Origin: a virus
Virus record (IMG/VR): IMGVR_UViG_3300026488_000018
Location: 25,721 to 89,720 of that record
Direction: 5' to 3' (one strand)
Length of the DNA: 64,000 nucleotides
Shown: in pieces, positions 42,249 through 62,427 of the stretch
Layout: each line of letters begins with the position of its first letter
How positions within the stretch are numbered: position 1 is the stretch's first letter
Program-made: the position numbers and the translations under genes
Notes under the pieces: generated by a model
Databases searched by the model: none
Seen by the model: the letters and a program-made list of their open reading frames with translations, nothing else
What the model was told of the DNA's origin: nothing

Positions 42249-42360
42249 GGCGGTTTTTCTTTCATTTTTCGATTTTCCCAGAAACCCAGCAACCAGGGGC
42301 AGTTCTCGGTATTGATTACGAATGGGTATTATAGATGTATCGCGCGGGGGAGGAGTGATG
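42249..42360 (+). other. Intergenic region with T-rich tract and two GGTATT copies
   Basis: A T-rich tract (TTTTTCTTTCATTTTTCG) suitable for termination, then TCTCGGTATTGATT and GGGTATTATAG, then GGGGGAGGAG before the next ATG. Confidence 0.4.
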
Positions 42361-42364
42361 TTGT

Positions 42365-43120
42365 ATGATTCCATATGAAATAAATTTTGTTCCAATGGAT
42401 GAAAAATTTGGCCTCAAATGGCGGGGCAAAGATGGAATTTGGCGCAAATATATATTAAAAAACAACGAGATGTTAATGGCGCGGAGATATAAAGATAATT
42501 CAATGTGGGTGTACATCTGCACTAATAAGGACGTAATTAAAGGGAAAAGGATGATGATAAGGTATATAGGAGGAGATGAAGGAGATGTTGTAATAGGAAA
42601 AGGATATGAGAGAGTATCTTGGTATTGTTGGAGGATACCAGAGAGCAGGTTTTTTTCTTGGGTATGGAAGTATGATATAGGAGAAGTGTTTAGGGATTTG
42701 TATTTACACGGTTGGCAGGTTTTCAGGATTTATAAGAAGGATGGTAAACGGTATACTTGGAAGAGCGATTATAGTGTGGATTATAATGGCCCTTTGGTTG
42801 TTTTAGGCAGGGGACGTTACGAGCACAAGAGCAAGCGTGTTCGGAGTGGTTTTATAAAGAAAGTTTCCACGAGCGAAGTGAAGTTGTTCGGTTTTGTTCC
42901 ATTCGCGCGGTTTAGTTTTTGCAGTGATGGCCGTTTGAACAGGGTATTTCCTTGTGAGGGCGACGCCATCCAAGACGGGGTATTTTCTTTAGATTTCGCG
43001 CGTTCTTGGCTGAGCGAGGAGTTCTTCGAGGCGCTGGTCGAGGGCCACAGGGTATTGTTTGACGTGTACGGCTCAGGCGAGTTTTTCTTTCGAGGTATTG
43101 AGTTTGATTGGGCTTTGTAG
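42365..43120 (+). CDS. Hypothetical protein
   Basis: A 251-residue basic, aromatic-rich protein (many Trp, Phe, Tyr, Arg and Lys) that I do not recognise; WKYDIGEVFRDLYLHGWQVF and SRFFSWVW are notable. The base composition changes part-way through: the last third is GC-rich with several GGTATT words, unlike the first two thirds, as if the end were recombined. It marks the boundary to the accessory arm. Confidence 0.55.
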   Translation: MIPYEINFVPMDEKFGLKWRGKDGIWRKYILKNNEMLMARRYKDNSMWVYICTNKDVIKGKRMMIRYIGGDEGDVVIGKGYERVSWYCWRIPESRFFSWVWKYDIGEVFRDLYLHGWQVFRIYKKDGKRYTWKSDYSVDYNGPLVVLGRGRYEHKSKRVRSGFIKKVSTSEVKLFGFVPFARFSFCSDGRLNRVFPCEGDAIQDGVFSLDFARSWLSEEFFEALVEGHRVLFDVYGSGEFFFRGIEFDWAL

Positions 43121-43399
43121 TTGCCCATTTTTGTTTCTGTTTGCGCGGTATTGGCTTTATTCTTGAATGGTCGTTTATTTTTTCGCGATTTTGGGCTTGG
43201 ATAGGTTACCCTATTTGAGAATTTTTCGCAAAGGATGAATTTCCGCACTGTCAATGCAGCATTTAATCTTAATTTGAGTTAGAGCGTAACATTGATGTGG
43301 TTCGATTCGGCCCCATTCGATGTTGATTATTGTTCCTCGAGCAAGTTCGAGCGAGGTTTTCCCTATATCCCCCGCAGCGCCGCGCGTTATAGCTGGGTG
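43121..43399 (+). other. AT-rich non-coding region before tandem repeat
   Basis: No convincing gene. It holds GCGCGGTATTGG, T-rich tracts (TTTATTTTTTCGCG), and a GGTTACCC near 43206. It separates the late 42365 gene from the 12-bp repeat array. Confidence 0.5.
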
Positions 43400-43597
43400 A
43401 TGAGAAATCTAATGAGAAATTCAATGAGATTTTTCATGCGTAATTTAATGAGAAATCCCATCAGTTTTTCAATGAGAAATCTCATGAGAAATTTAATGAG
43501 AAATCCAGTGAGAAATTCAATGAGAAATCTCACCAGTTTTTTAATGAGAAGTTCAGAGTTTTTTAATGAGAATGATGAGAAATTTAATGAGAAATTG
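43400..43597 (+). repeat. 12-bp tandem repeat array (ATGAGAAATNNA)
   Basis: Copies of ATGAGAAAT start at 43400, 43412, 43424 (variant), 43436 (variant), 43448, 43472, 43484, 43496, 43508 (GTG variant), 43520, 43544, 43575 and 43587. ATCAGTTTT and ACCAGTTTT occupy the 12-bp phase at 43460 and 43532. The period is exactly 12 bp over about 150 bp. It lies just upstream of the 43612 gene. Confidence 0.85.
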
Positions 43598-43611
43598 CGA
43601 GGGTGGTTTGT

Positions 43612-44064
43612 ATGGCCGGTTTTGTTAAGGCGAAGATTGTTCAGATGGGCTCCGACGAGCGCGTATATATAGGAAGATTCGCACGTATTCTCGGCTGGTC
43701 GCCAGGAGATAAGTTGATGTGTTATAAGAACAAGGACGGTAGCGTGTATTGCCAGAAGACGCGAGATGAGTTTCACTGGAACGCAAGGTTTTATAAGGGG
43801 GGTTATATTAGGTTTACAAAAGGTTTGGTTAATTTTAGAAAGGGAGATAGATTGAGCGTTGCTTTAGATGCAGAACACATGGGTATTAGAATTTTCAACA
43901 TGTCAAATCCCAGCGCAGTATCGTTTAGAGTGAGTGAAGAAGAGCTGTGCGATAAGATTAAGGAAATGACTGGTGTAAGGAAGGGTGAGATGTATGAGTT
44001 GTTCGTTGATTTCAACCAGGACGGGGTACCTTTGATTGGTATTAAAAAGGTGAGCGAAGATTGA
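43612..44064 (+). CDS. Putative AbrB-like DNA-binding protein, two repeats
   Basis: A 150-residue protein. Two segments resemble swapped-hairpin (AbrB/MazE) strands: RVYIGRFARILGWSPGDKLMCY, followed by a second YIRFTKGLVNFRKGDRLSVAL. Each has a hydrophobic-G-L/V-x-x-G-D pattern. If right, it could bind DNA, perhaps the tandem repeat that ends 15 bases before its start. The C-terminus (ELCDKIKEMTGV ...) is helical. The assignment is tentative. Confidence 0.45.
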   Translation: MAGFVKAKIVQMGSDERVYIGRFARILGWSPGDKLMCYKNKDGSVYCQKTRDEFHWNARFYKGGYIRFTKGLVNFRKGDRLSVALDAEHMGIRIFNMSNPSAVSFRVSEEELCDKIKEMTGVRKGEMYELFVDFNQDGVPLIGIKKVSED

Positions 44065-44886
44065 GCCATCGGCTAAATTCGCGGTATTATTTTGAGCCTT
44101 TTTTCTTTTTTCATATGGGTATGTTTGAGCATTTGGCCCACGATTTTACGGTTATTTTTCACGCGCAGTTTTGAGCGAATGTATGAATTCATCAGGCAGT
44201 TTTGGTTATTCGGCTAAGAATAGAATAGGATTTTGAGCTAACAATTTTTCGGCGCGGCCTTGGGTTGAACGGAAAAATTTTCGGAATAAGTGTATATACA
44301 GAAATTCCATCCGGGCACCTCAGACGGGGATATTTTCTTAGAGCGGTTTTGTGTATATGCAGAAATGAGCAATGTGTCGTTTTTCTAGTTTGGTATTACC
44401 GCAACTAGACGTTGAGTTGAAGATGTTCCTCGACAGGGTGAGTGCGTTTATTCCTGGGCGGTATAAGGGCATTATTATTTCGCAGCAGGGTATCACCTGT
44501 ATTATCGGAGTGTGGTATTTATTTTCTGGAGCAGTACAGGTATTGTCATTCCAATGGCGGTACGCAGTATTGTTTCTCAAGAGCGTTGGCACGGTATTGT
44601 TTTCTCTGGTTGGGGCTAGTTTGTGCTGCATTGTTATCACCTTGATGTGTTTTATGTTTATGTCACGTATTTAAAGGTTTCGCCCATTTGTAAGGGGCAA
44701 AATCTATATATAGGGGTTCGTATTTTAATAAGAGCGGAAGGGGCTTTTATTTCTATAAGAAATAAACATAATGTATAGAGTTATTCACTCGAGCTTTATC
44801 TCTCTTCTTAGAAGAAATACGGCAGAGCTACCACGGTGTACAAGTTTTAAATGGTTTTAATTTTTATTTTTAAGCGTGGGAATTTC
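44065..44886 (+). other. Long mostly non-coding region with repeats
   Basis: Over 800 bases with no gene that I trust. It contains GTATTA/GTATTG words (44087, 44390, 44530s-44590s), two copies of a GTGTATATRCAGAAAT element (44290 and 44351), a possible ATG ORF at 44372-44674 that would encode a 100-residue hydrophobic protein but has no ribosome-binding site, and a CTATATATAGGGG sequence near 44702. An AGAAATACGGCA word at 44813 recurs at 54897. Confidence 0.5.
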
Positions 44887-44934
44887 AACCGCAAGGTTTT
44901 TAAATGCTAGGTGCTTATATTAAAGCGAGGTGAT
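44887..44934 (+). promoter_or_regulatory. Repeated right-arm promoter, copy 1
   Basis: AACCGCAAGGTTTTTAAATG box, then CTTATATTAAAGCGAGGTGAT. First of a family of near-identical promoters; the short leader carries the ribosome-binding site. Confidence 0.7.
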
Positions 44935-44938
44935 GTGT

Positions 44939-45151
44939 ATGAAGCGCTGCGAAGAAGTCTTACTGAACGCCGGATATATATTCGCCCGCCCGGATGAGGG
45001 TTTTTACGTTGTTGAGTTGTTCGGCAAGGTGTGGATAATTATTTCCAACGAAACCCCAGAAAGCTTGCAAGAAAAACTGCGCAGTATTGCTTCCCCCAAG
45101 GAGTTGAGAAGAGAGTTTTATTGCGTTGAGGCGGTTAAGTTGCAGTTGTAA
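44939..45151 (+). CDS. Hypothetical small protein
   Basis: A 70-residue protein, family unknown: a helix (RCEEVLLNAGY), strands (FYVVELFGKVWIIIS) and a helical end. ATG 44939 is four bases after GAGGTGAT. Single gene under its own promoter. Confidence 0.7.
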   Translation: MKRCEEVLLNAGYIFARPDEGFYVVELFGKVWIIISNETPESLQEKLRSIASPKELRREFYCVEAVKLQL

Positions 45152-45206
45152 TGAGTTAGATGGTGATTTTTTTTGTTTGATGTTGATATGTTAAATGTTT
45201 TTATTT

Positions 45207-45254
45207 AACCGAAAGCTTTATAAAGGTTAAAGGCTAATATAATAGCGAGGTGAT
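45207..45254 (+). promoter_or_regulatory. Repeated right-arm promoter, copy 2
   Basis: AACCGAAAGCTTTATAAAGG box, then TTAAAGGCTAATATAATAG and CGAGGTGAT; almost identical to the copy at 49079. Confidence 0.8.
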
Positions 45255-45259
45255 GCTAA

Positions 45260-45562
45260 ATGCACGTCAATATTAAGGTGCTAGGAAGAATATTCCCCGT
45301 TAACGTGGTAGCGATGAAAGAAGATGAAAAAGAAATTGTTTACTATTTAGATGATGACGAAAAATTAAGGTTAAACGAGATTGTAGATATTCTTCCAAAA
45401 GAGAAGTGTTCTTTGTACGAAGAAGACAGGTTTTGGAATTTATATAGATTTGAATGCCATATTGACGGTGTTATTTACCGATACGGAAGAAATAAAGATA
45501 CAGGGGATGTAGAATATTTCGGTATTATAGCAGATGATAAAACTATTTGGTTGATCTTTTAA
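45260..45562 (+). CDS. Hypothetical small protein
   Basis: A 100-residue acidic beta-rich protein (VNIKVLGRIFPVNVVAM, EIVYYLDDD, WNLYRFECHIDGVIYRYG). Not recognised. Monocistronic, five bases after GAGGTGAT. Confidence 0.7.
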   Translation: MHVNIKVLGRIFPVNVVAMKEDEKEIVYYLDDDEKLRLNEIVDILPKEKCSLYEEDRFWNLYRFECHIDGVIYRYGRNKDTGDVEYFGIIADDKTIWLIF

Positions 45563-45608
45563 CGTTTTTAATTTTCTTATTTTAGGTAGGTGTTAAATGG
45601 TTTTATTT

Positions 45609-45656
45609 AACCGCAAAGTTTATAAAGGCTAAGCGCGTATGTTAAAGCGAGGTGAT
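45609..45656 (+). promoter_or_regulatory. Repeated right-arm promoter, copy 3
   Basis: AACCGCAAAGTTTATAAAGG box followed by CTAAGCGCGTATGTTAAAG and CGAGGTGAT. Confidence 0.8.
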
Positions 45657-45662
45657 TGCAAG

Positions 45663-46049
45663 ATGCCGAGCAGATACGTATATGAAGTTAAAGCAGATGA
45701 CGAGATTTACCTTGTCGCGGCGTATGGCAGGGAGGAGGCGCTTAGGATGGTATTTCCTAACGCCGAGGTGGAGGACAACAAGAAAGACCTGCTGTATTTC
45801 AAAGTCGGCAACAAGCGCGGTATTGTTTTTGTTGTTAAGAGGTGGGTTGATGATTCCATGGTGAGGAAGACAGCACGGGGCTACTATGTTGATGTGATGA
45901 ACGGCTACGCACTGATGAATGAAGATGAACTTAACGCTTTCTTGGAGAAGTACAAAACCTTTAGACCAAGGATTGCCCGCTGTATTGTCACGGTGGATGG
46001 TTTTGGACGACGCGAGAATGTAATTGAGGTAGAACTCGAGGGGAGGTGA
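45663..46049 (+). CDS. Hypothetical protein
   Basis: A 128-residue alpha/beta protein with no recognisable family: RYVYEVKADDEIYLVAAYG, a short helix, FKVGNKRGIVFVVKRWV, helix EDELNAFLEKY, end strand ARCIVTVDG. ATG 45663 after GAGGTGATTGCAAG. Its stop overlaps the RBS region of the broken gene at 46056. Confidence 0.65.
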   Translation: MPSRYVYEVKADDEIYLVAAYGREEALRMVFPNAEVEDNKKDLLYFKVGNKRGIVFVVKRWVDDSMVRKTARGYYVDVMNGYALMNEDELNAFLEKYKTFRPRIARCIVTVDGFGRRENVIEVELEGR

Positions 46050-46055
46050 TTCGAT

Positions 46056-46344
46056 ATGGTCGTCGAGGTCGAAAAACCCCCGCGGTATTGTCATTTTTTA
46101 CGGCGGCAGGAAGTTCGAGCTCCGGGGTGACTGGCTGGGTGATACAAGTTTTATCGCACGGGCGGATGATGCGAAAAATTTTAAAGACTCACTGGACTGG
46201 GTATTTGATTTCGAAGAGGATGAGATGTGGTTTTATAGAGATGATTTTGAGGGAGATATTGAACTCGTTTGAGATGCAGATACAGCGAAGGTGTGGTTTA
46301 AAATTTACACGCCCGGCAAGGTGTACATCATCGAAGCCTTTTAA
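46056..46344 (+). pseudogene. Broken small gene: frameshift plus in-frame TGA
   Basis: From ATG 46056 (after GAGGTGATTCG) the frame reads MVVEVEKPP and soon stops. Dropping one base in the A5C5 run at 46072-46081 continues as RGIVIFYGGRKFELRGDW, a plausible protein of about 95 residues. An in-frame TGA at 46270-46272 interrupts it before a coherent end (DADTAKVWFKIY ... EAF) at 46344. Two lesions suggest real decay, although either could be a sequence error. Confidence 0.5.
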
Positions 46345-46400
46345 CCCCCGGCCACGGTATTGCCTTTATTTTTTGAGAGAGTTTTACACGGTGATGCAGT

Positions 46401-46706
46401 ATGTATGAGAATGTTATCAGGGGTTTTGTTAGGGATGTTATTTCGACAGGCAAAGAGGAGATAACCGTGAGCAAAGGGTATTTACTTTCGCTTTACGCAA
46501 TGGCGAAGGAAACACGTTTCGATAGGGAGAGTAGTGTTATCGATAGTGGTGTCTGGCGCGGCGCCCCGTTCGTGGAGGTTTACGAGAGTTTCGACGTCGA
46601 CGGTATTATCATAAGCTTCGATGTAGTATTTGGAGCAGACGGTATTGGCGATATTTCAGTTGTAATATCATGGGATGATGAGGAGATTTTCGTATTGGAG
46701 GGGTGA
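46401..46706 (+). CDS. Hypothetical protein, paralogue of 51276
   Basis: A 101-residue acidic protein: N-terminal helix (NVIRGFVRDVI), then EEITVSKGYLLSLYAMAKETR, then strands. It resembles the 51276 protein in layout (helix, IQVNREELIVLYKTFKK, strands ending in VIRG/VLEG), so the two are probably distant paralogues. Preceded by GGTATTGCC and GGTGATG. Confidence 0.6.
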   Translation: MYENVIRGFVRDVISTGKEEITVSKGYLLSLYAMAKETRFDRESSVIDSGVWRGAPFVEVYESFDVDGIIISFDVVFGADGIGDISVVISWDDEEIFVLEG

Positions 46707-46712
46707 TACGTC

Positions 46713-46976
46713 ATGGCGCAGTTGGAGGTTACTGAGAAGGGCGAAAAGTTTCTTGAACGGTTTATTGGTAAAAGGAGTTTCTCCCCGGCGGTTGAGATGT
46801 TGAGCGTAGTGCAGGAGAATCTTATTTACGTCGACGAAGATGACGATGCGGTATCTTTGTTTGAGGCACTGAGTATTGTCTATGAGCAGGCCACGGAAGA
46901 ATCTTTTCCGGTGGAGTGGTATTGTTTATTCAAGTCGTTGTTAAATTTGGGTTACGTGAAGGTGGTGCAAAGGTGA
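46713..46976 (+). CDS. Hypothetical small protein
   Basis: An 87-residue mostly helical acidic protein (EKGEKFLERFIG, VEMLSVVQENL, SLFEALSIVYEQA). Not recognised. ATG follows GGAGGGGTGAT, six bases after the previous gene, so co-transcribed with it. Confidence 0.6.
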   Translation: MAQLEVTEKGEKFLERFIGKRSFSPAVEMLSVVQENLIYVDEDDDAVSLFEALSIVYEQATEESFPVEWYCLFKSLLNLGYVKVVQR

Positions 46977-46981
46977 TAGGT

Positions 46982-47030
46982 GACCAAAAGCTTTATAAAG
47001 GCTAAGGGCGTATATGTTGATGGAGGTGAT
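46982..47030 (+). promoter_or_regulatory. Repeated right-arm promoter, copy 4
   Basis: GACCAAAAGCTTTATAAAGG box then CTAAGGGCGTATATGTTG and GGAGGTGAT. Confidence 0.75.
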
Positions 47031-47033
47031 ATG

Positions 47034-47522
47034 ATGAAGGTTTGGAAGCTGGAGGAATTTGAGGAAATAAATCCTGACCTTGCTGAGGAGTTCGCCCTGG
47101 CGAAGGGCAAGAAGAAAGTCTCCCCCGAAAAACTGAAGGAGCTCGGTATTAATACTGAGAAGGGTGGTATTGTCGCCTTCAGGAGGGGGTATTCAATTAT
47201 CGAGCTGGAGAGCGGCGAGGTTTACGTCGTGGAGGGTATCATCGACGTTGGCAAAAGGAAGAGGAAGAATGCAGACACAAGTGGTGTGAGGAAGAGCCGC
47301 GGTGTAAGAGGCGAAAAGACGCGTATTATATTGAGCGAAATAAAGAAACTCCTGGATGAGAAGAAGGAGATTCGCATGGGCGAGGCATGGAGAATTCTCA
47401 AAGATAAGGGGCTGGTAAAGTATAGAGCTCATCTATATAATGTAGTAACCAAGCACTGCAGTATTGTTTATGATGAGGGCAGTAAGAGGCGCGAGATTAT
47501 CATCAAGGGTGTGAATCTCTGA
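47034..47522 (+). CDS. Winged-helix-type paralogue 1
   Basis: A 162-residue protein. The C-terminal about 75 residues (KTRIILSEIKKLL ... AWRILKDKGLV ... AHLYNVVTKHC ... IIIKG) align with the ends of the 50170 and 53357 proteins, giving a three-member family. The pattern of three helices then a hairpin with R/G-rich turn fits a winged helix. The N-terminal half differs and has strands around GGIVAFRRGYSIIELESG. Likely a DNA-binding regulator. Starts could be ATG 47031 or 47034. Confidence 0.6.
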   Translation: MKVWKLEEFEEINPDLAEEFALAKGKKKVSPEKLKELGINTEKGGIVAFRRGYSIIELESGEVYVVEGIIDVGKRKRKNADTSGVRKSRGVRGEKTRIILSEIKKLLDEKKEIRMGEAWRILKDKGLVKYRAHLYNVVTKHCSIVYDEGSKRREIIIKGVNL

Positions 47523-47562
47523 AGATTATCTTTTTGTTCTTATTTTTCCTCAACACAGGAAG

Positions 47563-47580
47563 CAATACTGCGCAGTATTG
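47563..47580. repeat. 18-bp perfect palindrome containing GTATTG
   Basis: CAATACTGCGCAGTATTG reads identically on both strands and carries the right-arm motif word in both orientations. It is 20 bases upstream of the 47600 start, in place of a normal promoter start element. Confidence 0.85.
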
Positions 47581-47599
47581 TTATTGGGGGTGGTTTAGG

Positions 47600-47830
47600 G
47601 TGTTTTATGTTTTTGATGGGGAGAATAAGGTTCTTCGCAAGGTGAGTGAAATTCCAAGCACTGGTACGTATTTAATTGGCCGCGACGAGGCGGAATTTGT
47701 TGCGTATCTTATTTTTATCATGGATGAGGGCGAGCGGTATTACCTTAACGTGGAAGATGGTAAAGTTAAGAGCGTTACGCGAGCTAAAGGCGTTATTTGT
47801 ATAGACCCTTCGTGGAAAGTGGAGATTTAA
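47600..47830 (+). CDS. Hypothetical small protein
   Basis: A 76-residue protein: strands FYVFDGENKVLRKV and YYLNVEDGKVKSVT around a hydrophobic AEFVAYLIFIMDE helix. GTG 47600 chosen with GGGGGTGG nearby. No family recognised. Confidence 0.5.
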   Translation: MFYVFDGENKVLRKVSEIPSTGTYLIGRDEAEFVAYLIFIMDEGERYYLNVEDGKVKSVTRAKGVICIDPSWKVEI

Positions 47831-47834
47831 GCTT

Positions 47835-47970
47835 TTATCCGCCGATTTTTGCGGAGCGATTTTTAATTTTTTCGCATGTGTCGTTCGCGATTTTAGGGGT
47901 TTTAGTTTTTTCGTTGTTTAAGCTAGGTTATTTAGTTAATTTTTGCTATTCTAACGCAACGCAGGGAACA
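47835..47970 (+). repeat. Dispersed ~130-bp repeat, copy 1
   Basis: Shares its order of segments with 53098-53270: TTATCCG ... ATTTTT near the start, and a strong block TTGTTTAAGCTAGG, TTAATTTTTGC, TTCTAACGCA at the end. The matching ORFs (47797 and 53097 frames) share LFKLGY, NFC and SNA, but neither has a ribosome-binding site. Confidence 0.6.
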
Positions 47971-48030
47971 GAACCATCCCGCCCGCGGTATTGTTCTATC
48001 GAGGCGAGGTTGGGTTGATTCCTAGTAGGA

Positions 48031-48080
48031 AATCGCAAGGTTTATAAAGAATGGAACATATAATGAAAAGTGAGGTGGTT
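48031..48080 (+). promoter_or_regulatory. Repeated right-arm promoter, copy 5
   Basis: AATCGCAAGGTTTATAAAG box, CATATAATGAAAAG and TGAGGTGG. Confidence 0.7.
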
Positions 48081-48084
48081 GGGC

Positions 48085-48318
48085 ATGGCATGTGATTATA
48101 CTGCAGCGATTGATACAATTTCAGACTACGGTGGGTTCGTTATTGAGTCTGATGAGGAAGTCGCAATTATGCGCTTTAAGGAGGGTGTATTTATTGTTAC
48201 CATGAGGGGAAGACCTGAAAATTGTATGCCTGTGCATGGGAAAAACGTTAGCATCGACGCTATTTCCAATCTTCCATATGTTACAGGTTTTTGGCCTGTT
48301 GACCTGGTGGAACTTTGA
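48085..48318 (+). CDS. Hypothetical small protein
   Basis: A 77-residue protein: helix (YTAAIDTISDYG), strands GFVIESDEEVAIMRFKEGVFIVTMRG. Not recognised; its size and helix-hairpin plan resemble the 44939 protein. ATG 48085 after GAGGTGG. Confidence 0.65.
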   Translation: MACDYTAAIDTISDYGGFVIESDEEVAIMRFKEGVFIVTMRGRPENCMPVHGKNVSIDAISNLPYVTGFWPVDLVEL

Positions 48319-48350
48319 TTTTTCTTTTTATTGGTGAGTATTCTTATGAA

Positions 48351-48403
48351 GAATCGTAAAGTTTATAAAGGGTTAAGGCTATAATAAAAGCGAAGGAGGT
48401 GAT
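48351..48403 (+). promoter_or_regulatory. Repeated right-arm promoter, copy 6
   Basis: AATCGTAAAGTTTATAAAG box, GGCTATAATAAAAGCG and AAGGAGGTGAT. Confidence 0.75.
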
Positions 48404-48406
48404 ATG

Positions 48407-48769
48407 ATGGGCGCCAAAAAACATGTAGCCATTGTTTGCCCGTATTGTAGGGATGTTGAGCTTATTGTGGATGGTAGGGTTTATGACTGGGTGCACAAGG
48501 TAAAAACTACCGAGATTTGTGAGGCAGTTAAGATGGATGAAAATTTGGATTATGAGTTGGAAGACTTAGGTATTGACACTGAGGAGTCTTATTGGGTACA
48601 CGATGGTTGCGGTTATCAATATGCAGGAGACATCGCTGATTTGGGTGTTGTCTTCCACGTCGATGAGGAGGATAATATCGTTTTAGACAAGGTAGGGACA
48701 TATTGGAAGGAAAACATCAATGAGTTGAAGAACATATTGTCGCGGGAGTTCGGGAAGATGGTTAAGTGA
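48407..48769 (+). CDS. Hypothetical protein with Cys pairs
   Basis: A 120-residue acidic protein. CPYCRD near residue 12 and single Cys at about 43 and 69 (DGCGYQY) could make one zinc site. The rest alternates short strands and helices. Family unknown. Monocistronic with its own promoter; ATG 48404 is an alternative start. Confidence 0.6.
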   Translation: MGAKKHVAIVCPYCRDVELIVDGRVYDWVHKVKTTEICEAVKMDENLDYELEDLGIDTEESYWVHDGCGYQYAGDIADLGVVFHVDEEDNIVLDKVGTYWKENINELKNILSREFGKMVK

Positions 48770-48788
48770 CTTTTCCATTGTTTTTATA

Positions 48789-48836: not shown

Positions 48837-48841
48837 AAACA

Positions 48842-56125: not shown

Positions 56126-56194
56126 ATGAACTGGATTGCGGCATTCTTTTTCGCGTATTTTTTGTTAGGAGCGGTTGTTAATTTGATTTGGTAG
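56126..56194 (+). CDS. 22-residue single-helix membrane peptide
   Basis: MNWIAAFFFAYFLLG plus VVNLIW, almost entirely hydrophobic, with a good ribosome-binding site (GGGGAGGTG) ten bases upstream. It resembles the next small ORF (AALFMVFAYL ...). A membrane micropeptide is plausible. Confidence 0.4.
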   Translation: MNWIAAFFFAYFLLGAVVNLIW

Positions 56195-56204
56195 AGCAAT
56201 TGAG

Positions 56205-56300
56205 GTGGGTGTTCTTGAAGAGCAGCACAGCCCTGGGTATTATTTGACGAGCGCGGCATTGTTCATGGTGTTCGCGTATTTGATGTGGTTGTTATTATGA
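56205..56300 (+). CDS. 31-residue possible membrane peptide
   Basis: A GTG-started ORF with a hydrophilic start and a hydrophobic end (TSAALFMVFAYLMWLLL). Weak ribosome-binding site. Similar hydrophobic core to the 56126 peptide, so it may be a duplicate. Confidence 0.3.
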   Translation: MGVLEEQHSPGYYLTSAALFMVFAYLMWLLL

Positions 56301-56323
56301 TTGGCGATGTTAATTAAGCCATC

Positions 56324-56368
56324 AACCGCAAACTTTATAAAGGCTAAAGGCGTATATGCTATTGGTGA
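56324..56368 (+). promoter_or_regulatory. Repeated right-arm promoter, copy 11
   Basis: AACCGCAAACTTTATAAAGG box, CTAAAGGCGTATATGC and TTGGTGATG. Confidence 0.8.
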
Positions 56369-56374
56369 TGCATG

Positions 56375-57006
56375 ATGGTGGCTGCCAACAGGTTTAAGCT
56401 TGAAGGGCTTGTTTTGGAAGATATTATGGCTTTTCACAAGACGAGGAGGTTCAATTTGGGAAAAACAAGTGGTATGTTATTAGAGATATCGGCAAGAAAA
56501 CAGGCATCAGGTTCCGGGAGGTTGGTATTGTTGTTGATGAGTTGATTGAGAAGGGTTATCTCAGGGTTAGGAAGAAATATGGCAGGAATTATCTTCTGCT
56601 AACGAAAAAGGGCAGGGAGTATTACATGGAGAATTTTGGTGACTGGAAGGAGAAGGTGCTGATTAAACTTGAGAGGGGTGAATGGGTTGTTCTTGCCATC
56701 GGTTACCGGGAAGGTGAGTATTGGGATATTTCAGATAAAATACATTCGGTTCTTGATTGGAACAGAGATGTAAAAGAAAATTGGATTAGGAATACGCGCT
56801 TGGATGAGTATGTTTGGAAAATTATTGTTCCGCGCGATGCCGGTGAGGAAGCTTTTCGGAAGTTAAAGGATATGGGTGTCGACATTATTTTGGAGGTTGG
56901 AGAGCACGCTGTTACCAGTTGGTTATCATGGGTTATGTATATTGGGCATGTCGCGTCGGACGTTGGAAAGACGAACGATTACACAAACCCCGCACTCGCA
57001 GAGTAA
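56375..57006 (+). pseudogene. Winged-helix regulator split by -1 frameshift
   Basis: From ATG 56375 the frame reads RFKLEGLVLEDIMAF. Moving back one base at the T4 run 56431-56434 gives SQDEEVQFGKNKWYVIRD, IGKKTGIRFREVGIVVDEL and IEKGYLRVRKKYGRNYLLL. This is a winged helix with a recognition helix and beta wing, then an about 100-residue second domain, ending at 57006. One missing T explains the split; programmed slippage is possible. The product would be a DNA-binding regulator. Confidence 0.6.
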
Positions 57007-57008
57007 AG

Positions 57009-57060
57009 TCACAATCTTTATAAACCAGCTGCGCAGTATTGTTTTCCAAATGGGGTGGTT
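57009..57060 (+). promoter_or_regulatory. Promoter with GCGCAGTATTGTTTT start element
   Basis: CAATCTTTATAAACCAG box, GCGCAGTATTGTTTTCC at the expected start, then GGGGTGG. Confidence 0.7.
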
Positions 57061-57065
57061 TTACG

Positions 57066-57920
57066 ATGAGGGTTTTTCGCGTTATGAGCGAGGAGGAGTT
57101 CAATTGTCTGATGGAGAAGGGTTGTGGGTATTGTTTCAAGCGCGATTGGAAGGGCCGCGCGGTGAAGGAGAAGTGGTTCGCGCTGGACGAGGGCTATATT
57201 GCAGCAATTCTTGGGCGGGGTATGTTTCACGGGCGCCGTGTGAAGGATGCGTATCGTTATGTTGTGGAGTTTGATATTCGTGGGTATTGGGGCAAGGCGA
57301 AGCACGAGCTGGGCTATTTAAACATTCCTCTACTGGTAAACAAGCCATTTCACTGCCGCATTGTTTCTTGGTGGGGAGCGGATGAGTGGTTCGAGGAGAG
57401 AGGTAAGACATTACTAAACCCGGTTGGGTATTACTGGAACAGGAACGGTGAGTTGCGCCGTATTGTCGATAGAAAGGAGCTGAAGAATATTGCCCTGAAC
57501 GGGAATGAAGAGCAGGGTTTATTTGTTAGGGCGGATTTTGTTAAGGATGTTTTTGAGGCGCCGTATTATTGCAAGTTGTGTGGCAAGAGCTTCGCGCGGG
57601 TGGAGCAGGCGGTAGCTCATATCGAGAGCGTTCACGGTGCGGTGGATGAGTCGGGCGAGTGTATCGACGCGGTTGGAATGTATGCCGAGGTGGTTGACGC
57701 TGTAGAGCGAGGCTTACTTTATGAGGGCGGTCTTGTTGGCGGGGTTAAGCTGCTGGGTATTGGTTACGGCGGGGTATTGCTTCGTATTGTTGATGGTTGG
57801 GTTGATATTCGCAACCTCGCGCGACTGGGCGTGAGGACTATTTTCGACGACGCTTCATTCGTATTGCCCCACGATGTTGTGATTAAGTTTGTGAAGAAGT
57901 ACGGAGGTGTTGCTAAATGA
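57066..57920 (+). CDS. Hypothetical protein with C2H2-like zinc finger
   Basis: A 284-residue protein. A classical-looking finger (YYCKLCGKSFARVEQAVAHI with a His 5 later) sits at about 165-187. The N-terminal part is mixed strand and helix (MRVFRVMSEEEFN ... GYIAAILGRGMF ... YRYVVEFDIRGYW), reminiscent of small ART- or RNA 2'-phosphotransferase-like folds, but without clear active-site residues. The C-terminus carries repeated short strands. Unusually rich in GTATT words in all three phases. Confidence 0.6.
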   Translation: MRVFRVMSEEEFNCLMEKGCGYCFKRDWKGRAVKEKWFALDEGYIAAILGRGMFHGRRVKDAYRYVVEFDIRGYWGKAKHELGYLNIPLLVNKPFHCRIVSWWGADEWFEERGKTLLNPVGYYWNRNGELRRIVDRKELKNIALNGNEEQGLFVRADFVKDVFEAPYYCKLCGKSFARVEQAVAHIESVHGAVDESGECIDAVGMYAEVVDAVERGLLYEGGLVGGVKLLGIGYGGVLLRIVDGWVDIRNLARLGVRTIFDDASFVLPHDVVIKFVKKYGGVAK

Positions 57921-58153
57921 TTAGGTTTGTGGTATTTTATTCAACGCAGAGTAAGAAGCGTGTTGTTGGCGTATTTGAGACAGATAATGCTTTCATTAAG
58001 CCAGACACAGGCGAGCTCAGGATTTGGGTCGGCGGCGACGGCTGGGTATTTACTATCGGCGAGGATGAGATTGGGTCGGTTCTTAGCCAGTTGGTTGATG
58101 GTAAGGATGTTATCATTGTCCACGGCGCGGCGCTGAACAGGGTTGTAGGGTGA
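57917..58153 (+). CDS. Hypothetical small protein
   Basis: A 78-residue beta-rich protein (RFVVFYSTQSKKRVVGVFET, ELRIWVGGDGWVFTIG, DVIIVHG). ATGA overlap with the previous gene. Not recognised; similar style to the 48842 protein. Confidence 0.6.
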   Translation: MIRFVVFYSTQSKKRVVGVFETDNAFIKPDTGELRIWVGGDGWVFTIGEDEIGSVLSQLVDGKDVIIVHGAALNRVVG

Positions 58154-58159
58154 TTTAAA

Positions 58160-58459
58160 ATGCCCAAATATTTTTGTGTAGAAGGTTGGGATGAAAACGG
58201 CAAATATATTGGTGAAGAATGTTATCCACGCGAATTTAAGGCAATTATTCTTGAATTTTTGGATAGTGTTAAAATTTATGTCGAGGGTAAAGACGAAATT
58301 GGAGATTATTGGACAAGGTATACTGTTGATAAGAGAAAATGGTGGAAGGCGTTTGAGGGTATGATGTGGAAGTATAGTGGTATTGATGTTGAGATTGTGG
58401 CCATGTTGGGACATTTTGCATGGATATTTAGAGATGCGAAAATAATAGATATTGGTTGA
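58160..58459 (+). CDS. Hypothetical protein
   Basis: A 99-residue aromatic-rich protein (YFCVEGWDENGKYIG, FLDSVKIYVEG, KRKWWKAFEGMMWKYSG). Not recognised; codons are more AT-rich than neighbours. ATG after GGGTGATTTAAA. Confidence 0.6.
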   Translation: MPKYFCVEGWDENGKYIGEECYPREFKAIILEFLDSVKIYVEGKDEIGDYWTRYTVDKRKWWKAFEGMMWKYSGIDVEIVAMLGHFAWIFRDAKIIDIG

Positions 58460-58510
58460 AAAAAGTTGTAATGAAGCGTCATTGATGCTTTGGAGGAATA
58501 GCGATGATTG

Positions 58511-58572
58511 CAGCAAAAACTTTATAAAGGGCAAGGTGTTAATTATAATCGAAAAACAAAAGCTGGGGGTGG
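58511..58572 (+). promoter_or_regulatory. Repeated right-arm promoter, copy 12
   Basis: GCAAAAACTTTATAAAGGG box, GTTAATTATAATCG and GGGGGTGG. Confidence 0.7.
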
Positions 58573-58578
58573 TAGGCA

Positions 58579-58857
58579 ATGACGTGGCAGGTCGAGACTC
58601 TTGATGGTGGCTGGATTTGGAATTTCAATGCGGAGAAGCCAAGCGAGAGTTTTCTTGAGAATATACTGCCGAATGTTAAGTTCGAGGTTCTTCCTGGCCT
58701 TGCCATAAAGGTCAGAGACCCGCTGTTCGGGGAGGCTGTGCTCTTCCCAATGTGGAAGGATGAGGATGGTCTTAGAAAGATTGTTGCTTGGCAGGGCTGG
58801 GTTAAGTTTAAGGGATTAAGGGTAGAGTTGTTTGTGAAGAATCGGAATGTGTTTTGA
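58579..58857 (+). CDS. Hypothetical protein
   Basis: A 92-residue protein, Trp-rich, likely beta (TWQVETLDGGWIWNFNAE, FEVLPGLAIKVRDP, KIVAWQGWVKFKGLRVELFV). Not recognised. Own promoter. Confidence 0.6.
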   Translation: MTWQVETLDGGWIWNFNAEKPSESFLENILPNVKFEVLPGLAIKVRDPLFGEAVLFPMWKDEDGLRKIVAWQGWVKFKGLRVELFVKNRNVF

Positions 58858-58929
58858 TTCTTATTTTTATTGACAGGTTTTTGTTTTTGTTTAGTTTTGC
58901 TTATGTTATGTTTTGTGGGGTGATGAAGA

Positions 58930-59094
58930 ATGATTAACAGCATTATCATTATGAAGGATGGTAAAGAGATTTTTGGTATAGATGTTGGTGCATATCTTGA
59001 AGATTTATACGCCGAGTATGGTGCGGGGCGATGGCGCGTAGTAATAATTGATAGCAATGGTAAAGTTGTTTATGACAAAGAGGAAAAATATTAG
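58930..59094 (+). CDS. 54-residue hypothetical protein
   Basis: MINSIIIMKDGKEIFGIDVG, a helix (AYLEDLYAEYG) and WRVVIIDSNGKVVYD. Good ribosome-binding site (GGGGTGATG). Layout echoes the 34914/35098 proteins: strand pair, helix, strand pair. Function unknown. Confidence 0.55.
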   Translation: MINSIIIMKDGKEIFGIDVGAYLEDLYAEYGAGRWRVVIIDSNGKVVYDKEEKY

Positions 59095-59116
59095 GAGTTT
59101 GTTTGGGGTGAATAGT

Positions 59117-59785
59117 ATGGTCGGCATTAGCGGTATTCGTGATAGACAAGTTGAGTTGGTTAAGAAGGATGGTTACAAGGTTGTTGTGTTTGGCGGTTGG
59201 CCGCGGTGGGAGGAGTATTTTGAGCGATATCTGGATTTGGAGTTCATAGATAAGGATGGTAATGTTGTTGAGTTGAGACCGGAATTTCAATGGCAGTGGA
59301 AGCAGAATTACCCCGAGTTGGTGGTTGAGGATATAGTGAAGCATAGGGCTGTTATAGGTGCATTGAATGATGGCGCGAGAGATTGGCTTTACGGCGATTT
59401 GCTGTATCGGGGTATTAATAAGTGGTTGTTCGTGAGGTATCTTCTTGTGCGGTATAAAAAATGGGTTGCAGAGGAGAGAAATAAGGCATATACAATGTGG
59501 AAGAAAAACGAGCCGTATTGGAACAGGTATAACGGTATTGTGAGGAGGGAAGGGTTGGGTTATATTCCAACTCAGTTAGATGTTGAAGTTGCGTATAAGT
59601 ACGGATATTGGAAGGGTTATTACGATGCTATGAGAAAAGTTAGAGCTGATTTAAAGACGATGGCTATGACCCCGAGGTATGTAATATGGAACGGTAAACG
59701 TCCGGGTATTGTTATTGATACGAAGATTAGTCGTGGTTGGCTGGCGCTGGTTAGGCGGCTGTACGATGTCAGGTTTGAGAAGTGA
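59117..59785 (+). CDS. Hypothetical protein
   Basis: A 222-residue protein, very rich in Trp, Tyr and Arg (KHRAVIGALNDGARDWLYGD, KWLFVRYLLVRYKKWVAEE, YKYGYWKGYYDAMRK). Mostly helical and basic in the centre, suggesting nucleic-acid or virion contacts; not assigned. ATG 59117 after GGGGTG. Confidence 0.55.
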   Translation: MVGISGIRDRQVELVKKDGYKVVVFGGWPRWEEYFERYLDLEFIDKDGNVVELRPEFQWQWKQNYPELVVEDIVKHRAVIGALNDGARDWLYGDLLYRGINKWLFVRYLLVRYKKWVAEERNKAYTMWKKNEPYWNRYNGIVRREGLGYIPTQLDVEVAYKYGYWKGYYDAMRKVRADLKTMAMTPRYVIWNGKRPGIVIDTKISRGWLALVRRLYDVRFEK

Positions 59786-59945
59786 TGGGTATGTAGAGAA
59801 CGCGCTGGGCGAATTCGTAAGACGAAATTTTGAACAGACAGGTAAGACACCACTATACCTCAGCCGCGGTATTGCTTTGTACCGAAGGGGAGATGTTATA
59901 GTTCAGGACGAGGTGAGCGATATTAGGATGGCGATTATGTTTTAG
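59766..59945 (+). CDS. 59-residue hypothetical protein
   Basis: A short protein (YVENALGEFVRRNFEQTGK helix; LYLSRGIALYRRGDVIVQDE hairpin). It overlaps the end of the preceding gene; start uncertain. Unknown family. Confidence 0.45.
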   Translation: MSGLRSDGYVENALGEFVRRNFEQTGKTPLYLSRGIALYRRGDVIVQDEVSDIRMAIMF

Positions 59946-60101
59946 TGGAGGCGATGGAAGCATATGCACCACGGGCGAGGTAAGGCTGTATCGCTGGTGG
60001 TTAAGACGGATGATGTTGTTGAGTAATGATGTTTTATTTCGCGCGGGTTTGAGGTTTGTCCCTTTTAACATTTGGTGGTGTATCTTTATTGGGTGATGAA
60101 C

Positions 60102-60326
60102 TTGGATAAGGCGCCGCTGGGTATTGTGTTGACGGCGGTTGTTATTTTGAGTGTGTTCGGGGGTATTATGTATTTGAGCGGTGATAATACATACGAGCAG
60201 AAGACGTATAACTTTGACGAGCGCGACAGGGTGTTTGATTGCGTCATCGGTGCTAACGACACAGTATTATCGTGTAAGTATTTGGATGATGGTTCGAGTA
60301 TAGATTGGCTCCCGGCGCTGAGGTGA
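60102..60326 (+). CDS. Small membrane-anchored protein
   Basis: A 74-residue protein: one N-terminal membrane helix (LGIVLTAVVILSVFGGIMYL) followed by an acidic exposed domain with two Cys (FDCVIG, LSCKYL) that could form a disulphide outside. TTG 60102 follows GGGTGAT; ATG 60096 lies within it. Unknown function, perhaps envelope or exclusion related. Confidence 0.55.
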   Translation: MDKAPLGIVLTAVVILSVFGGIMYLSGDNTYEQKTYNFDERDRVFDCVIGANDTVLSCKYLDDGSSIDWLPALR

Positions 60327-60330
60327 TGCA

Positions 60331-60471
60331 ATGGATGGACTATACGAGAAAGTGTTGATTTTCTTTTTGGGAGCAGTGATTGGCCCCGTAATCGGAACTT
60401 TAAATACCCTAGCGTTGGTATTGTCTTTCGTAGCTGTTGTTGTGCTGATGAATGGGGGGGCGCAGGCTTAG
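60331..60471 (+). CDS. 46-residue two-helix membrane protein
   Basis: Hydrophobic segments LIFFLGAVIGPVIGTL and LALVLSFVAVVVLM. ATG after GAGGTGATGCA, four bases after the previous gene, so the two membrane proteins are probably made together. Holin-like topology, role unproven. Confidence 0.5.
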   Translation: MDGLYEKVLIFFLGAVIGPVIGTLNTLALVLSFVAVVVLMNGGAQA

Positions 60472-60485
60472 GAGACAGTTCGAGG

Positions 60486-60535
60486 AGTGACGAAAACTTT
60501 AAAACCCCCGCCCGCAGTATTGTTTTTTGAAGGTG
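60486..60535 (+). promoter_or_regulatory. Promoter with CCGCAGTATTGTTTT start element
   Basis: GAAAACTTTAAAACCCC box, CCGCAGTATTGTTTTTTG, then AAGGTGATG. Confidence 0.65.
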
Positions 60536-60915
60536 ATGAATGATGGTAGGGTCAGCGTTGAGAATAGTTTAGTTTTTGATATTAAGTTTGATTTTATGGG
60601 TTTGGTGAGATATATCGGAATTGTTATATCAAGAATGGGAAGGCTAGGTGGAAAGATGATGATAGTTTCGCAGGAATATTAAAGCTGAAGTTCCCTTATT
60701 TCGGAAAGAACGTAAAGATAGTTCTTGATAATTTCATGAGGGAGATACATCTGGGGGGGATAATATTTGATAACAGAAGCACAATGATGGTGTTTAAGAA
60801 TTGGTATAAACATATTGGTGAAGACGAGTTTTGGAAAATTGTCGCAGACGCTTTTAGGAGGGATTTGGAGTATTATTTGTCGGGAGGTGATGTTAACGCT
60901 TATGATAGACGATGA
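60536..60915 (+). pseudogene. Broken gene, frameshift near ATATAT
   Basis: From ATG 60536 the frame reads MNDGRVSVENSLVFDIKF and FMGLVRY. Deleting two bases at the GAGATATATCGG site (about 60609-60616) continues as RNCYIKNGKARWKDDDSFAG, LKLKFPYFGKNVKIVLDNF and a long tail to TGA at 60913. The joined protein of about 126 residues is coherent, whereas the undisturbed frame ends early. A dinucleotide expansion is the likely lesion. The first ATG almost touches its GAAGGTG site, so the start is unsure. Confidence 0.5.
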
Positions 60916-60959
60916 AGAGGCGCTTGGTATTAACGCGGTTTATTTTGGAGGTGTTTACG

Positions 60960-61853
60960 GTGATTGATGGGTTTATTCGTTATCCCAAGATTTATAGGTT
61001 AGGTCACGAGAAGAATCGTGGCATTTTCGAGCGCGGTATTGTTTATGTCACGGAGAAGGTCGATGGGGCGAATTTTCGGTTTATGAATGATGGAGGTAGG
61101 CTTAGGTACGGCAGTAGGCGGAGAGAACTTACGGGTGTTGATGATGTTGGTCAGTTTAGGAGGGCGGTTGAGAAGGTCCTCGAGTTCGAGCCCGGCGATT
61201 TGCACGAGGGTTGGGTGTATTTTGTCGAGTATATGATTCCGCACACAATTCAGTACGATTGGAACAGAACCCCACTGTTCCTGGGTATTGATATTTGGAA
61301 TGGCGAGAAATGGTTGAGTTATGATGAGGCAGAGAAGGAATTTGCGCGGCTGGGTATTGAAATTGTTCCACTGGTTGATGTGCGAGATGTGAGCGAGATT
61401 GATGAGCATTATTTGGATAAGGTAATTCCTAAGTCGAAGTATTACAACGGCGAGGCAGAAGGCGTGGTGTTCAAGAATTACGATTTGCAGATTTTCGCAA
61501 AGTTGGTATCGGAGAGGTTCAAGGAGAGGAATGAGAAGGTGTTCGGCAAGAGCAAGAAGAAAGCTCGTCAGGAAGGTTGTGAGGCGTATTTATTGGAAAA
61601 GTACGTTCCCCCGCGCCGCGTTGAGAAAGTCATCCAGGCGCTGGTTGATGAGGGTTATAGGTTGAGCATGGAGTTAATGACAGTATTGCCAAGACGGGTA
61701 TTAGAAGATGTTATCGAAGAGGAAGGCGCTGAGATTTTCAGAGAGAATTGCACGGTTGATTTCAGGAAGTTCAGGAAGTTGATTTCCAGACGGTGTTATA
61801 ACGTATTGCAGAGGATGCTAGCTGTACAGAGCGTTATCGATAAAGGAGCATAA
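60960..61853 (+). CDS. RNA/DNA ligase-type nucleotidyltransferase
   Basis: A 297-residue covalent nucleotidyltransferase. TEKVDGANFRF is motif I with the AMP-accepting Lys, YGSRR and EYM follow (motif III region), then GIDIW, EGVVFKNY (motif IV) and FAKLVS (motif V with Lys). This is closest to T4 Rnl2-like and archaeal RNA ligases. It could repair host-cleaved RNA or join nicks. The C-terminus is a helical domain with two Cys. GTG 60960 follows TTGGAGGTG; an ATG at 60912 overlaps the upstream stop but lacks a site. Confidence 0.75.
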   Translation: MIDGFIRYPKIYRLGHEKNRGIFERGIVYVTEKVDGANFRFMNDGGRLRYGSRRRELTGVDDVGQFRRAVEKVLEFEPGDLHEGWVYFVEYMIPHTIQYDWNRTPLFLGIDIWNGEKWLSYDEAEKEFARLGIEIVPLVDVRDVSEIDEHYLDKVIPKSKYYNGEAEGVVFKNYDLQIFAKLVSERFKERNEKVFGKSKKKARQEGCEAYLLEKYVPPRRVEKVIQALVDEGYRLSMELMTVLPRRVLEDVIEEEGAEIFRENCTVDFRKFRKLISRRCYNVLQRMLAVQSVIDKGA

Positions 61854-62030
61854 GGTTTATAAAGGGTGAAGTTATATGAATTATTAAGCAGTTTGAGATG
61901 GCTGGGAGTTTGTAAAGGTGGTCGGCGGGGTTGTTGGGATTGGTGTAATCAGAGGGATTAACGAACGCAGCTAAATTCGTGGTAACTATAATCAGTAACT
62001 GAACCACGGTATTGTTTTTTGGAGGTGAGT
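61849..62030 (+). promoter_or_regulatory. TATA box and short intergenic region
   Basis: ATAAGGTTTATAAAGGG overlaps the ligase stop, with GTTATATGAATTATT downstream as in other right-arm promoters but no gene directly after it. A second start region, CCACGGTATTGTTTTTTGG at about 62004 with GGAGGTGAG, serves the 62034 gene. Confidence 0.5.
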
Positions 62031-62033
62031 AGG

Positions 62034-62348
62034 ATGAAAGTGTATGTTGTTGTTGAATGGGCTATCGATTATTTTTACAAGGTTTGGGGCGTATTTTCAA
62101 CCAAGGAGAAGGCTGAATAGTTTGTAGAGAAATTAAAACGGCTTAGTAAGATTACATCGCCGGAACTTTTAGACGGTGAACTTCATATCGATGAAGTGGA
62201 ACTAGACGATGATAGTGTATATCTCGTTGAGTGTAGGTGGTTTAATGATAGTGGCGAGGTAGTTCACAGGTATTATAGTAGGTTGACAAAGGATAGAAAC
62301 TATCACGATAAGGGTATTGGATATGAGTGCAGAGTAGTGGAAGATTAA
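62034..62348 (+). pseudogene. Small gene with in-frame TAG at codon 29
   Basis: ATG 62034 after GGAGGTGAG opens MKVYVVVEWAIDYFYKVWGV ... KEKAE, then TAG (62118-62120), and the same frame continues FVEKLKRLSKITSPELLDG, IDEVELDDDSVYLVECRWF to TAA at 62348. The codon pattern is normal on both sides, so this is either a recent nonsense mutation, a suppressed amber codon, or an error. The full product would have 104 residues. Confidence 0.55.
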
Positions 62349-62384
62349 GTATGCAATGAGACTGAGAAGAGAATTACAGACGTG

Positions 62385-62427
62385 GTGGTAGCAAAGTTAA
62401 AGCCCGCAGTATTGTTTTTGGAGGTGA
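62385..62427 (+). promoter_or_regulatory. Promoter with CCGCAGTATTGTTTT start element
   Basis: GCAAAGTTAAAGC box (weak), CCGCAGTATTGTTTTTGG and GGAGGTGAT. Confidence 0.55.

What the first reader, a model, noticed from the sequence alone, without database searches (positions are those of the whole stretch)
42300..62410. Strand-biased GTATTG word in every codon phase and in non-coding DNA
On the + strand a word of GC-rich lead plus GTATTG (often GCGCGGTATTGTTT or CTGGGTATTG) recurs far above chance. Between 55.0 and 58.2 kb my hand count is about 20 GTATTG on the + strand and none of CAATAC, where about one per strand would be expected. Within genes it is read as GGT-ATT-G (Gly-Ile, 55395), GTA-TTG (Val-Leu, 55553, 57774, 57862) and TAT-TGx (Tyr-Cys/Trp, 57127, 57283), so codon preference cannot explain it. 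It is also dense in non-coding DNA (55908-56100). This points to selection at DNA or RNA level: a Chi-like recombination site, a primase or packaging signal, an RNA processing site, or a modification target.
Basis: seen in the sequence. Interest (0 to 1): 0.82.

Follow-up and report, generated by a model that had tools for sequence, protein, structure and literature searches.

The report
One-strand GGTATTG word in archaeal virus
The genome of a tailed virus of heat-loving archaea is studded, on one DNA strand only, with a short sequence (core GGTATTG) about five times more often than chance, inside and between genes alike, so something probably reads that sequence, but what reads it is not yet known.

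Summary
GTATTG occurs 224 times on the + strand and 10 times on the other strand of the 89.7-kb virus record. In genes it occurs 176 times against 73±6.5 when synonymous codons are shuffled (z=16), in all three reading phases. GCGGTATTG occurs 11 times in non-coding DNA against 0.26 expected. The reverse complement is at chance level. Non-coding copies give the fuller motif CNSGGTATTGTTTTT. An unbiased codon-aware scan ranks overlapping pieces of this word first. Druskaviruses, MCP relatives, Thermococcales DNA and other word-bearing viral contigs lack the effect. The record is an uncultured tailed archaeal virus: Druskaviridae-like capsid, PolB, PriL, Hel308, QueC/D/E, hyperthermophile-type proteome, every gene on the + strand. 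The word is best read as a protein-recognised, one-strand site specific to this virus. The closest known signature is the nick-associated words of phage tf and its relatives (one strand, coding and non-coding alike). I favour a viral DNA-strand-processing site (nick or primer start), p about 0.4. A non-template-strand transcription element (ops-like, CGGTA) is the main rival, p about 0.3. No reader protein was identified, and the decisive strand test cannot be made here because all genes point one way.

The parts
1..64000 (+). Strand-exclusive word GGTATTG (extended CNSGGTATTGTTTTT): 163 GTATTG on + and 7 on - in the window; whole record GGTATTG +141/-2
55169..57866 (+).
55770..56239 (+). Non-coding stretch with 6 GGTATT / 5 GTATTG, e.g. 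AGTCAGCGCGGTATTGTCTTTACT at 55932 and AGCGTCGCGGTATTGTTTTTAAT at 56094
53314..53341 (+). Promoter-like example: TTTATAAA box then CCAGCAGCGCCGTATTGTTT with SD and ATG; the word falls about 19 nt after the start of the TATA box (where the open complex would melt). Similar at 57036, 60517, 60418, 46357, 19117
6676..8751 (+). Portal protein gene (places the record among tailed archaeal viruses)
16591..17766 (+). Major capsid protein, nearest named relatives Druskaviridae (HVTV-1, HCTV-1), 27% identity
38033..39433 (+). Terminase large subunit
19498..26228 (+). Replication/recombination block, candidate source of a reader protein: RecA/DnaB-like ATPase 19498-20526, PriL 20530-21612, PolB 21587-23785, OB-fold protein 23837-24631, RecB/Cas4-like nuclease 24628-25470, ERCC4 nuclease 25467-26228
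27451..30737 (+). 7-deazaguanine (preQ0) pathway: QueC 27451-28284, unknown phrog_12378 28298-28933, QueE 28930-29646, QueD 29649-30128, GTP cyclohydrolase I 30135-30737

Best explanation
The + strand carries a graded recognition site, C-N-[CG]-G-G-T-A-T-T-G-T-T with a C-rich approach and a T-rich exit, about 24 nt in all. I infer that it is read as single-strand or strand-oriented DNA by a viral (or virus-specific) DNA-processing protein, in the way nick-associated words mark one strand of phage tf and its relatives: as a site of strand-specific nicking or primer start during unidirectional replication or packaging. Shown here: the site, its strand exclusivity, its independence of reading phase, its presence in non-coding DNA and its absence from relatives.
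For: Strand-exclusive, phase-independent and genome-wide excess with a neutral reverse word. Graded tolerance of one-base variants, not copied blocks. Defined footprint -13 to +10. Density in non-coding DNA at least as high as in genes and no link to start codons overall. Known nick words behave the same way: in my control tf's TACTRTGMC is 14 top / 0 bottom, in two reading phases, and stays on the top strand inside leftward genes. In 61 Pseudomonas phages the nick motif averages 9.0 per genome vs 0.7 by chance and lies mostly on the coding strand, with 88% in CDS (PMC11780129). GC skew is of one sign along the record and as strong in non-coding DNA (0.37) as at fourfold sites (0.34), as expected if one strand is treated differently throughout. 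The virus has its own PolB, PriL, RecB-like nuclease and ERCC4 nuclease.
Against: The site is about five times denser than any published nick word and its specificity is looser than tf's. No HNH, HUH or other nickase was recognised (many small proteins match nothing). Spacing is clustered, with no upper limit (CV 1.2, gaps to 5.3 kb), which does not favour a priming signal. Every gene is on the + strand, so a transcription-level reading is equally compatible with the strand bias.
Confidence: 0.4

Rival explanations
1. A transcription element read in the non-template strand of the RNA polymerase bubble (pause or factor-loading site, working like the bacterial ops element or NusG-dependent T-rich pauses), placed on the sense strand because transcription runs one way.
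For: All called genes except two tiny doubtful ones are on +. The core CGGTA equals bases C3-A7 of ops (GGCGGTAGCGTG), of which G4, G5 and A7 are essential for RfaH recruitment and C3 and T6 reduce it (PMC5995543). The T-rich exit TTGTTT fits the TTNTTT pause motif read by NusG (PMC12288461). GTAT is enriched 18-19 nt after TTTATA/TTTAAA (13 seen vs 3.7 expected), where the open complex would melt.
Against: Sites are not concentrated in leaders or near starts. No NusG/Spt5 (KOW) homologue was recognised among the scanned proteins. The elemental-pause spacing (G-10, Y-1, G+1) does not fit this motif. The promoter cases are few and partly paralogous. A five-base match to ops can be chance.
Confidence: 0.3
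2. A Chi-like site at which a viral or host end-resecting nuclease/helicase is regulated from one direction.
For: Short, GC-led, non-palindromic, orientation-specific, graded, lineage-specific word; the virus encodes RecB/Cas4-like nuclease, Hel308, RadA-like and ERCC4 proteins.
Against: No Chi site or RecBCD/AddAB-type enzyme is known from archaea (own knowledge). Chi sites I know of are several-fold sparser. The word is not enriched in the Thermococcales DNA sampled (18 and 18 per strand in 449 kb), though the host is unproven.
Confidence: 0.12
3. An mRNA-level element (binding site of an RNA-binding protein or a processing site) carried by all viral transcripts.
For: Sense strand only, phase-independent; the virus encodes an RNA ligase (60960-61853) and two calcineurin-type phosphoesterases.
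Against: No supporting RNA structure around sites; no Rfam match. In the promoter-like cases the word would lie at or upstream of the expected transcription start and would not be in the RNA (inferred from TATA spacing).
Confidence: 0.09
4. Target of the virus's own DNA base modification (7-deazaguanine insertion at G in a fixed motif).
For: QueC, QueE, QueD and GTP cyclohydrolase I are encoded together; Druskaviridae virus HVTV-1 carries 7-deazaguanine DNA, and DpdA of phage CAjan modifies specific GA and GGC motifs (PMC8306585).
Against: Does not explain why one orientation of the motif is enriched; known motifs are 2-3 bases; no TGT/DpdA domain was recognised; HVTV-1 has no comparable one-strand word.
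Confidence: 0.05
5. Ordinary: codon-pair usage, amino-acid preference or composition skew.
For: The + strand is GT-rich and Gly-Ile (GGT-ATT) is frequent; relatives' top words are of this single-phase kind.
Against: z=16 over a null that keeps protein and codon usage, excess in all three phases, and 5 to 40-fold excess in non-coding DNA.
Confidence: 0.02

Closest known systems
Nick-associated one-strand words of phages tf/LUZ24 group (TACTRTGMC), phiKMV group and T5
   Same: Over-represented word almost exclusively on one strand, through genes in several phases and between genes, function unknown (PMC3517423, PMC11780129; my tf control: 14/0).
   Different: Here the density is about 1 per 0.6 kb instead of 1 per 3-5 kb, the motif is graded, no breaks have been shown, and the virus is archaeal. 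The T5 word (RGCGC) is not strand-exclusive by count.
ops element / RfaH and NusG TTNTTT pauses
   Same: Read in one (non-template) strand; CGGTA core and T-rich exit resemble these.
   Different: ops occurs once or a few times per operon leader (own knowledge), while this word is spread through gene bodies; no NusG/Spt5 paralogue found.
Chi sites
   Same: Short, orientation-specific, over-represented, lineage-specific.
   Different: Much denser; no RecBCD/AddAB; unknown in archaea.
Strand-biased EcoP15 sites of phage T7 (type III restriction evasion)
   Same: All copies in one orientation (36 of 36 in T7; PMC3874151).
   Different: There one orientation is absent; here the reverse word sits at its chance level (8 vs 8.7) and the forward word is enriched.
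Druskaviridae (HVTV-1, HCTV-1, HCTV-5) and relatives
   Same: Capsid and portal homologues, RNR, RadA-like, RecB-like, ERCC4/Hef, Que genes, near-absence of GATC.
   Different: 27% MCP identity, all genes on one strand, hyperthermophile-type proteins, and the word, which druskaviruses lack.

Membership tests
Nick-associated one-strand words (tf/T5/phiKMV class) | Word over-represented and confined to one DNA strand | tested here: met
   GGTATTG +141/-2; codon-null z about 15
Nick-associated one-strand words (tf/T5/phiKMV class) | Word keeps its DNA strand irrespective of gene direction | tested here: inconclusive
   No leftward genes in this record to test it; met in tf
Nick-associated one-strand words (tf/T5/phiKMV class) | Ligatable single-strand break at the word in virion DNA | not testable with these tools
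   Needs native DNA
Nick-associated one-strand words (tf/T5/phiKMV class) | Same word in related viruses | tested here: not met
   Druskaviruses, 36 MCP relatives and other contigs lack it
ops/NusG-type pause element | Consensus elemental pause (G-10, Y-1, G+1) around the word | tested here: not met
   Base profile after the core has no fitting Y-1 G+1 at the right spacing; G at +8 is depleted
ops/NusG-type pause element | NusG/Spt5 paralogue in the virus | tested here: not met
   None in the Pfam scans, which covered most but not all proteins
Chi site | Attenuates a RecBCD/AddAB-type nuclease from one side | not testable with these tools
   Biochemical; no such complex recognised in the scanned proteins
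Type III restriction strand bias | Reverse orientation depleted below chance | tested here: not met
   CAATAC 8 vs 8.7, AATACC 12 vs 7.9
DpdA modification motif | TGT/DpdA enzyme plus preQ0 pathway | tested here: inconclusive
   Pathway present; no recognisable TGT domain, phrog_12378 protein unassigned
Druskaviridae (virus) | Homologous MCP and portal | tested here: met
   27% and about 23% identity; distant, so I call it Druskaviridae-like and not a member

The most novel reading that the evidence does not exclude
A virus-wide, strand-specific sequence code read on the non-template DNA strand by the archaeal transcription machinery or a viral factor attached to it: the same element at the melting edge of some promoters and about every 0.5 kb through gene bodies, strong enough to shape protein sequences. 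No archaeal counterpart of ops is known to me.
Probability: 0.18. Interest if true: 0.85.

Novelty: new variant of a known kind. Interest (0 to 1): 0.6.

Why it matters
One-strand words in viral genomes have been known since the T5 nicks, but their purpose is unexplained. This virus offers a signal far denser than any published case, with a clear motif, in archaea that include genetically tractable heat-loving species. Finding its reader would link sequence to function in a class of signals with no accepted role, and could reveal either a new DNA-strand-processing system or an archaeal transcription element.

Tried and rejected
(1) Codon usage, codon context and composition as sole cause: rejected. 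(2) Short mobile repeat copied around: rejected; flanks do not match beyond the motif and one-base variants are enriched in graded fashion. (3) Promoter or start-codon signal: only a handful of sites; no overall link to starts or SD. (4) Attenuator or hairpin: upstream RNA not more stable than shuffled; no Rfam match. (5) Same word in relatives: absent. HVTV-1's CTCGGGCA (15:1) looked promising, but it is not significant against many similar words and is absent in HCTV-1 and HCTV-5. Words such as AGACCC, CTGGTGG, GGTACT in MCP relatives are single-phase codon effects. GTGGGC in L114 and L116 is weak and not on one strand over the whole contig. (6) Host by CRISPR spacers: 601 Thermococcales spacers gave matches no better than a reversed control. 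(7) Type III restriction evasion: rejected because the reverse word is not depleted. (8) T5 nick word resemblance (GCGCGG): not informative; that word is rare and unbiased in the T5 stretch searched. (10) Viral-contig searches with portal, MCP, PolB and RNR alone found nothing; TerL found one distant contig.
Full report
What was checked. The window is bases 25721-89720 of an 89,720-base virus record. I fetched the remaining 25.7 kb and analysed the whole record. GTATTG occurs 163 times on the + strand and 7 times on the - strand of the window, 224 and 10 in the whole record; GGTATTG 141 and 2.

Is it more than chance? Against an order-2 Markov model GGTATT is the most enriched 6-mer (208 vs 65 in the window) and CGGTATTG the most enriched 8-mer (43 vs 2.8). 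Genes were called by a simple codon-score script: 129 genes, two of them tiny and doubtful on the - strand, all others on +. Shuffling synonymous codons within each gene, which keeps every protein and its codon usage, gives 72.9+-6.5 GTATTG where 176 are seen, and each of the three phases exceeds its own null (44 vs 11.9, 108 vs 50.1, 24 vs 10.9). GGTATT is 214 vs 93.9. The reverse word is at its null (8 vs 8.7). A stricter null that also preserves codon-junction dinucleotides still leaves z about 10. In 13.5 kb of non-coding DNA GTATTG is 45 vs 10.9 and GCGGTATTG 11 vs 0.26. A blind scan of all 6-mers and 7-mers, ranked by the second-best phase so that single-phase codon effects drop out, puts overlapping pieces of GCGGTATTGT at the top of this virus with z above 8. 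In every other virus scanned the best such word has z of 6.1 or less, and in the larger genomes it occurs about equally on both strands.

The motif. In coding sites the consensus is C-N-[CG]-GGTATTG-T-[TC]; free of coding constraint it is C-G-C-GGTATTG-TTTTT with a C-rich approach from about -10. Both inner T positions (TaT) tolerate almost nothing; A to G, last T to C, and the outer G positions are partly tolerated. Sites are irregularly spaced (CV 1.2, gaps up to 5.3 kb), not tied to start codons or SD sequences overall, without special RNA structure. In about six places the word lies 17-19 nt after the start of a TATA box, and GTAT is over-represented 18-19 nt after TATA-like hexamers (13 vs 3.7), which is where an archaeal open complex would melt; some of these promoters are repeats of one another.

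What carries it. Portal, major capsid protein, head protease, terminase and tail proteins mark a tailed virus; PolB, PriL, Hel308, a RadA-like ATPase, ERCC4 and RecB/Cas4-like nucleases, an intein-bearing ribonucleotide reductase and ThyX are present. Capsid and portal are nearest to Druskaviridae among named viruses, at 27% and 23% identity. The proteome has the hyperthermophile signature (IVYWREL 0.45, charged-minus-polar 0.13, (E+K)/(Q+H) 5.4). The left end of the record is the 3' end of a tRNA that I read as tRNA-Leu, differing from the Thermococcales gene at 1 of 39 bases, and the reductase gene matches Thermococcales DNA at 66-72% over several hundred bases. This suggests but does not prove a Thermococcales-like host; 601 Thermococcales spacers gave no match above control. 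A 2026 preprint describes three head-tailed Thermococcales virus families, one of them with PolB (PMC12934983); I could not compare sequences. A preQ0 pathway (QueC, QueE, QueD, GTP cyclohydrolase) suggests 7-deazaguanine DNA as in HVTV-1 (PMC8306585).

Relatives. HVTV-1, HCTV-1 and HCTV-5, vir335, vir519, 36 IMG/VR contigs with a homologous capsid gene, 73 Thermococcales loci and about 85 viral contigs fetched because they contain the word were tested. None shows the one-strand, multi-phase excess. Some relatives have a top word, but it sits in one codon phase and is a codon or protein effect. The trait is therefore private to this virus among what could be searched; near-identical records may have been withheld by the tool.

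What it most likely is. The combination of one-strand exclusivity, phase independence, even presence in non-coding DNA, graded specificity and a roughly 24-nt footprint points to recognition by a protein (inference). The published class with the same genomic signature is the nick-associated words: tf's TACTRTGMC, which I recounted as 14 on the top strand and none on the bottom, including two inside leftward genes, and its spread over 61 Pseudomonas phages at 9.0 copies against 0.7 expected, mostly on the coding strand, 88% in genes (PMC11780129). I therefore favour a strand-specific DNA-processing site (nick or primer start), confidence 0.4. The chief rival, 0.3, is a transcription element read in the non-template strand: all genes run one way, the core CGGTA equals ops bases C3-A7 that matter for RfaH recruitment (PMC5995543), TTGTTT fits the NusG motif TTNTTT (PMC12288461), and some promoters hold the word at the melting edge. 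Against it, sites are not in leaders, the elemental-pause spacing does not fit, and no NusG/Spt5 paralogue was found. Chi-like action, an mRNA element and base modification remain possible at lower odds. Because every gene is on the + strand, the sequence alone cannot separate DNA-level from transcription-level readers; that is the main limit of this report.

Verdict. I rate it a new variant of a known kind (one-strand over-represented viral words), the first I know of in an archaeal tailed virus and much denser than earlier cases.

Noticed in passing
27451-30737: Gene cluster for 7-deazaguanine (preQ0) synthesis: QueC, QueE, QueD and GTP cyclohydrolase I, with an unassigned protein (phrog_12378, 28298-28933) between QueC and QueE that could be the DNA transglycosylase.
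   Followed up: partly
whole record; window 1-64000: GATC is almost absent (7 found vs 183 expected in the record); it is also 0 in the Druskaviridae stretches examined. CTAG and GTAC are mildly avoided.
   Followed up: partly
whole record: G exceeds C very strongly on + (GC skew about 0.42 in the window), equally in non-coding DNA and at fourfold sites, with no switch along 90 kb.
   Followed up: partly
L009:1-38: The left end of the record is the 3' end of a tRNA (read as tRNA-Leu, CCA encoded), one base different from Thermococcales genes; possible attachment site or truncated viral tRNA, though no integrase was recognised.
   Followed up: partly
44887-63630 (12 copies): Family of near-identical promoter-plus-SD blocks, CCGNAAGCTTTATAAAGGNTAANGGC...GCGAGGTGATG, in front of small genes in the right third.
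   Followed up: partly
30846-34043: Ribonucleotide reductase large subunit with an intein-like insertion (about residues 462-595); 66-72% DNA identity to Thermococcales genes.
   Followed up: partly
43400-43620: Tandem 12-bp repeats (ATGAGAAATCTA-like) forming a short array.
   Followed up: no
60960-61853; 34269-34910; 40262-40843: An RNA ligase (PF09414) and two calcineurin-type phosphoesterases, a possible RNA repair set.
   Followed up: no
51820-51859: A leftward promoter-like block (TATA plus BRE on the - strand) with no clear leftward gene; possible antisense transcript.
   Followed up: no
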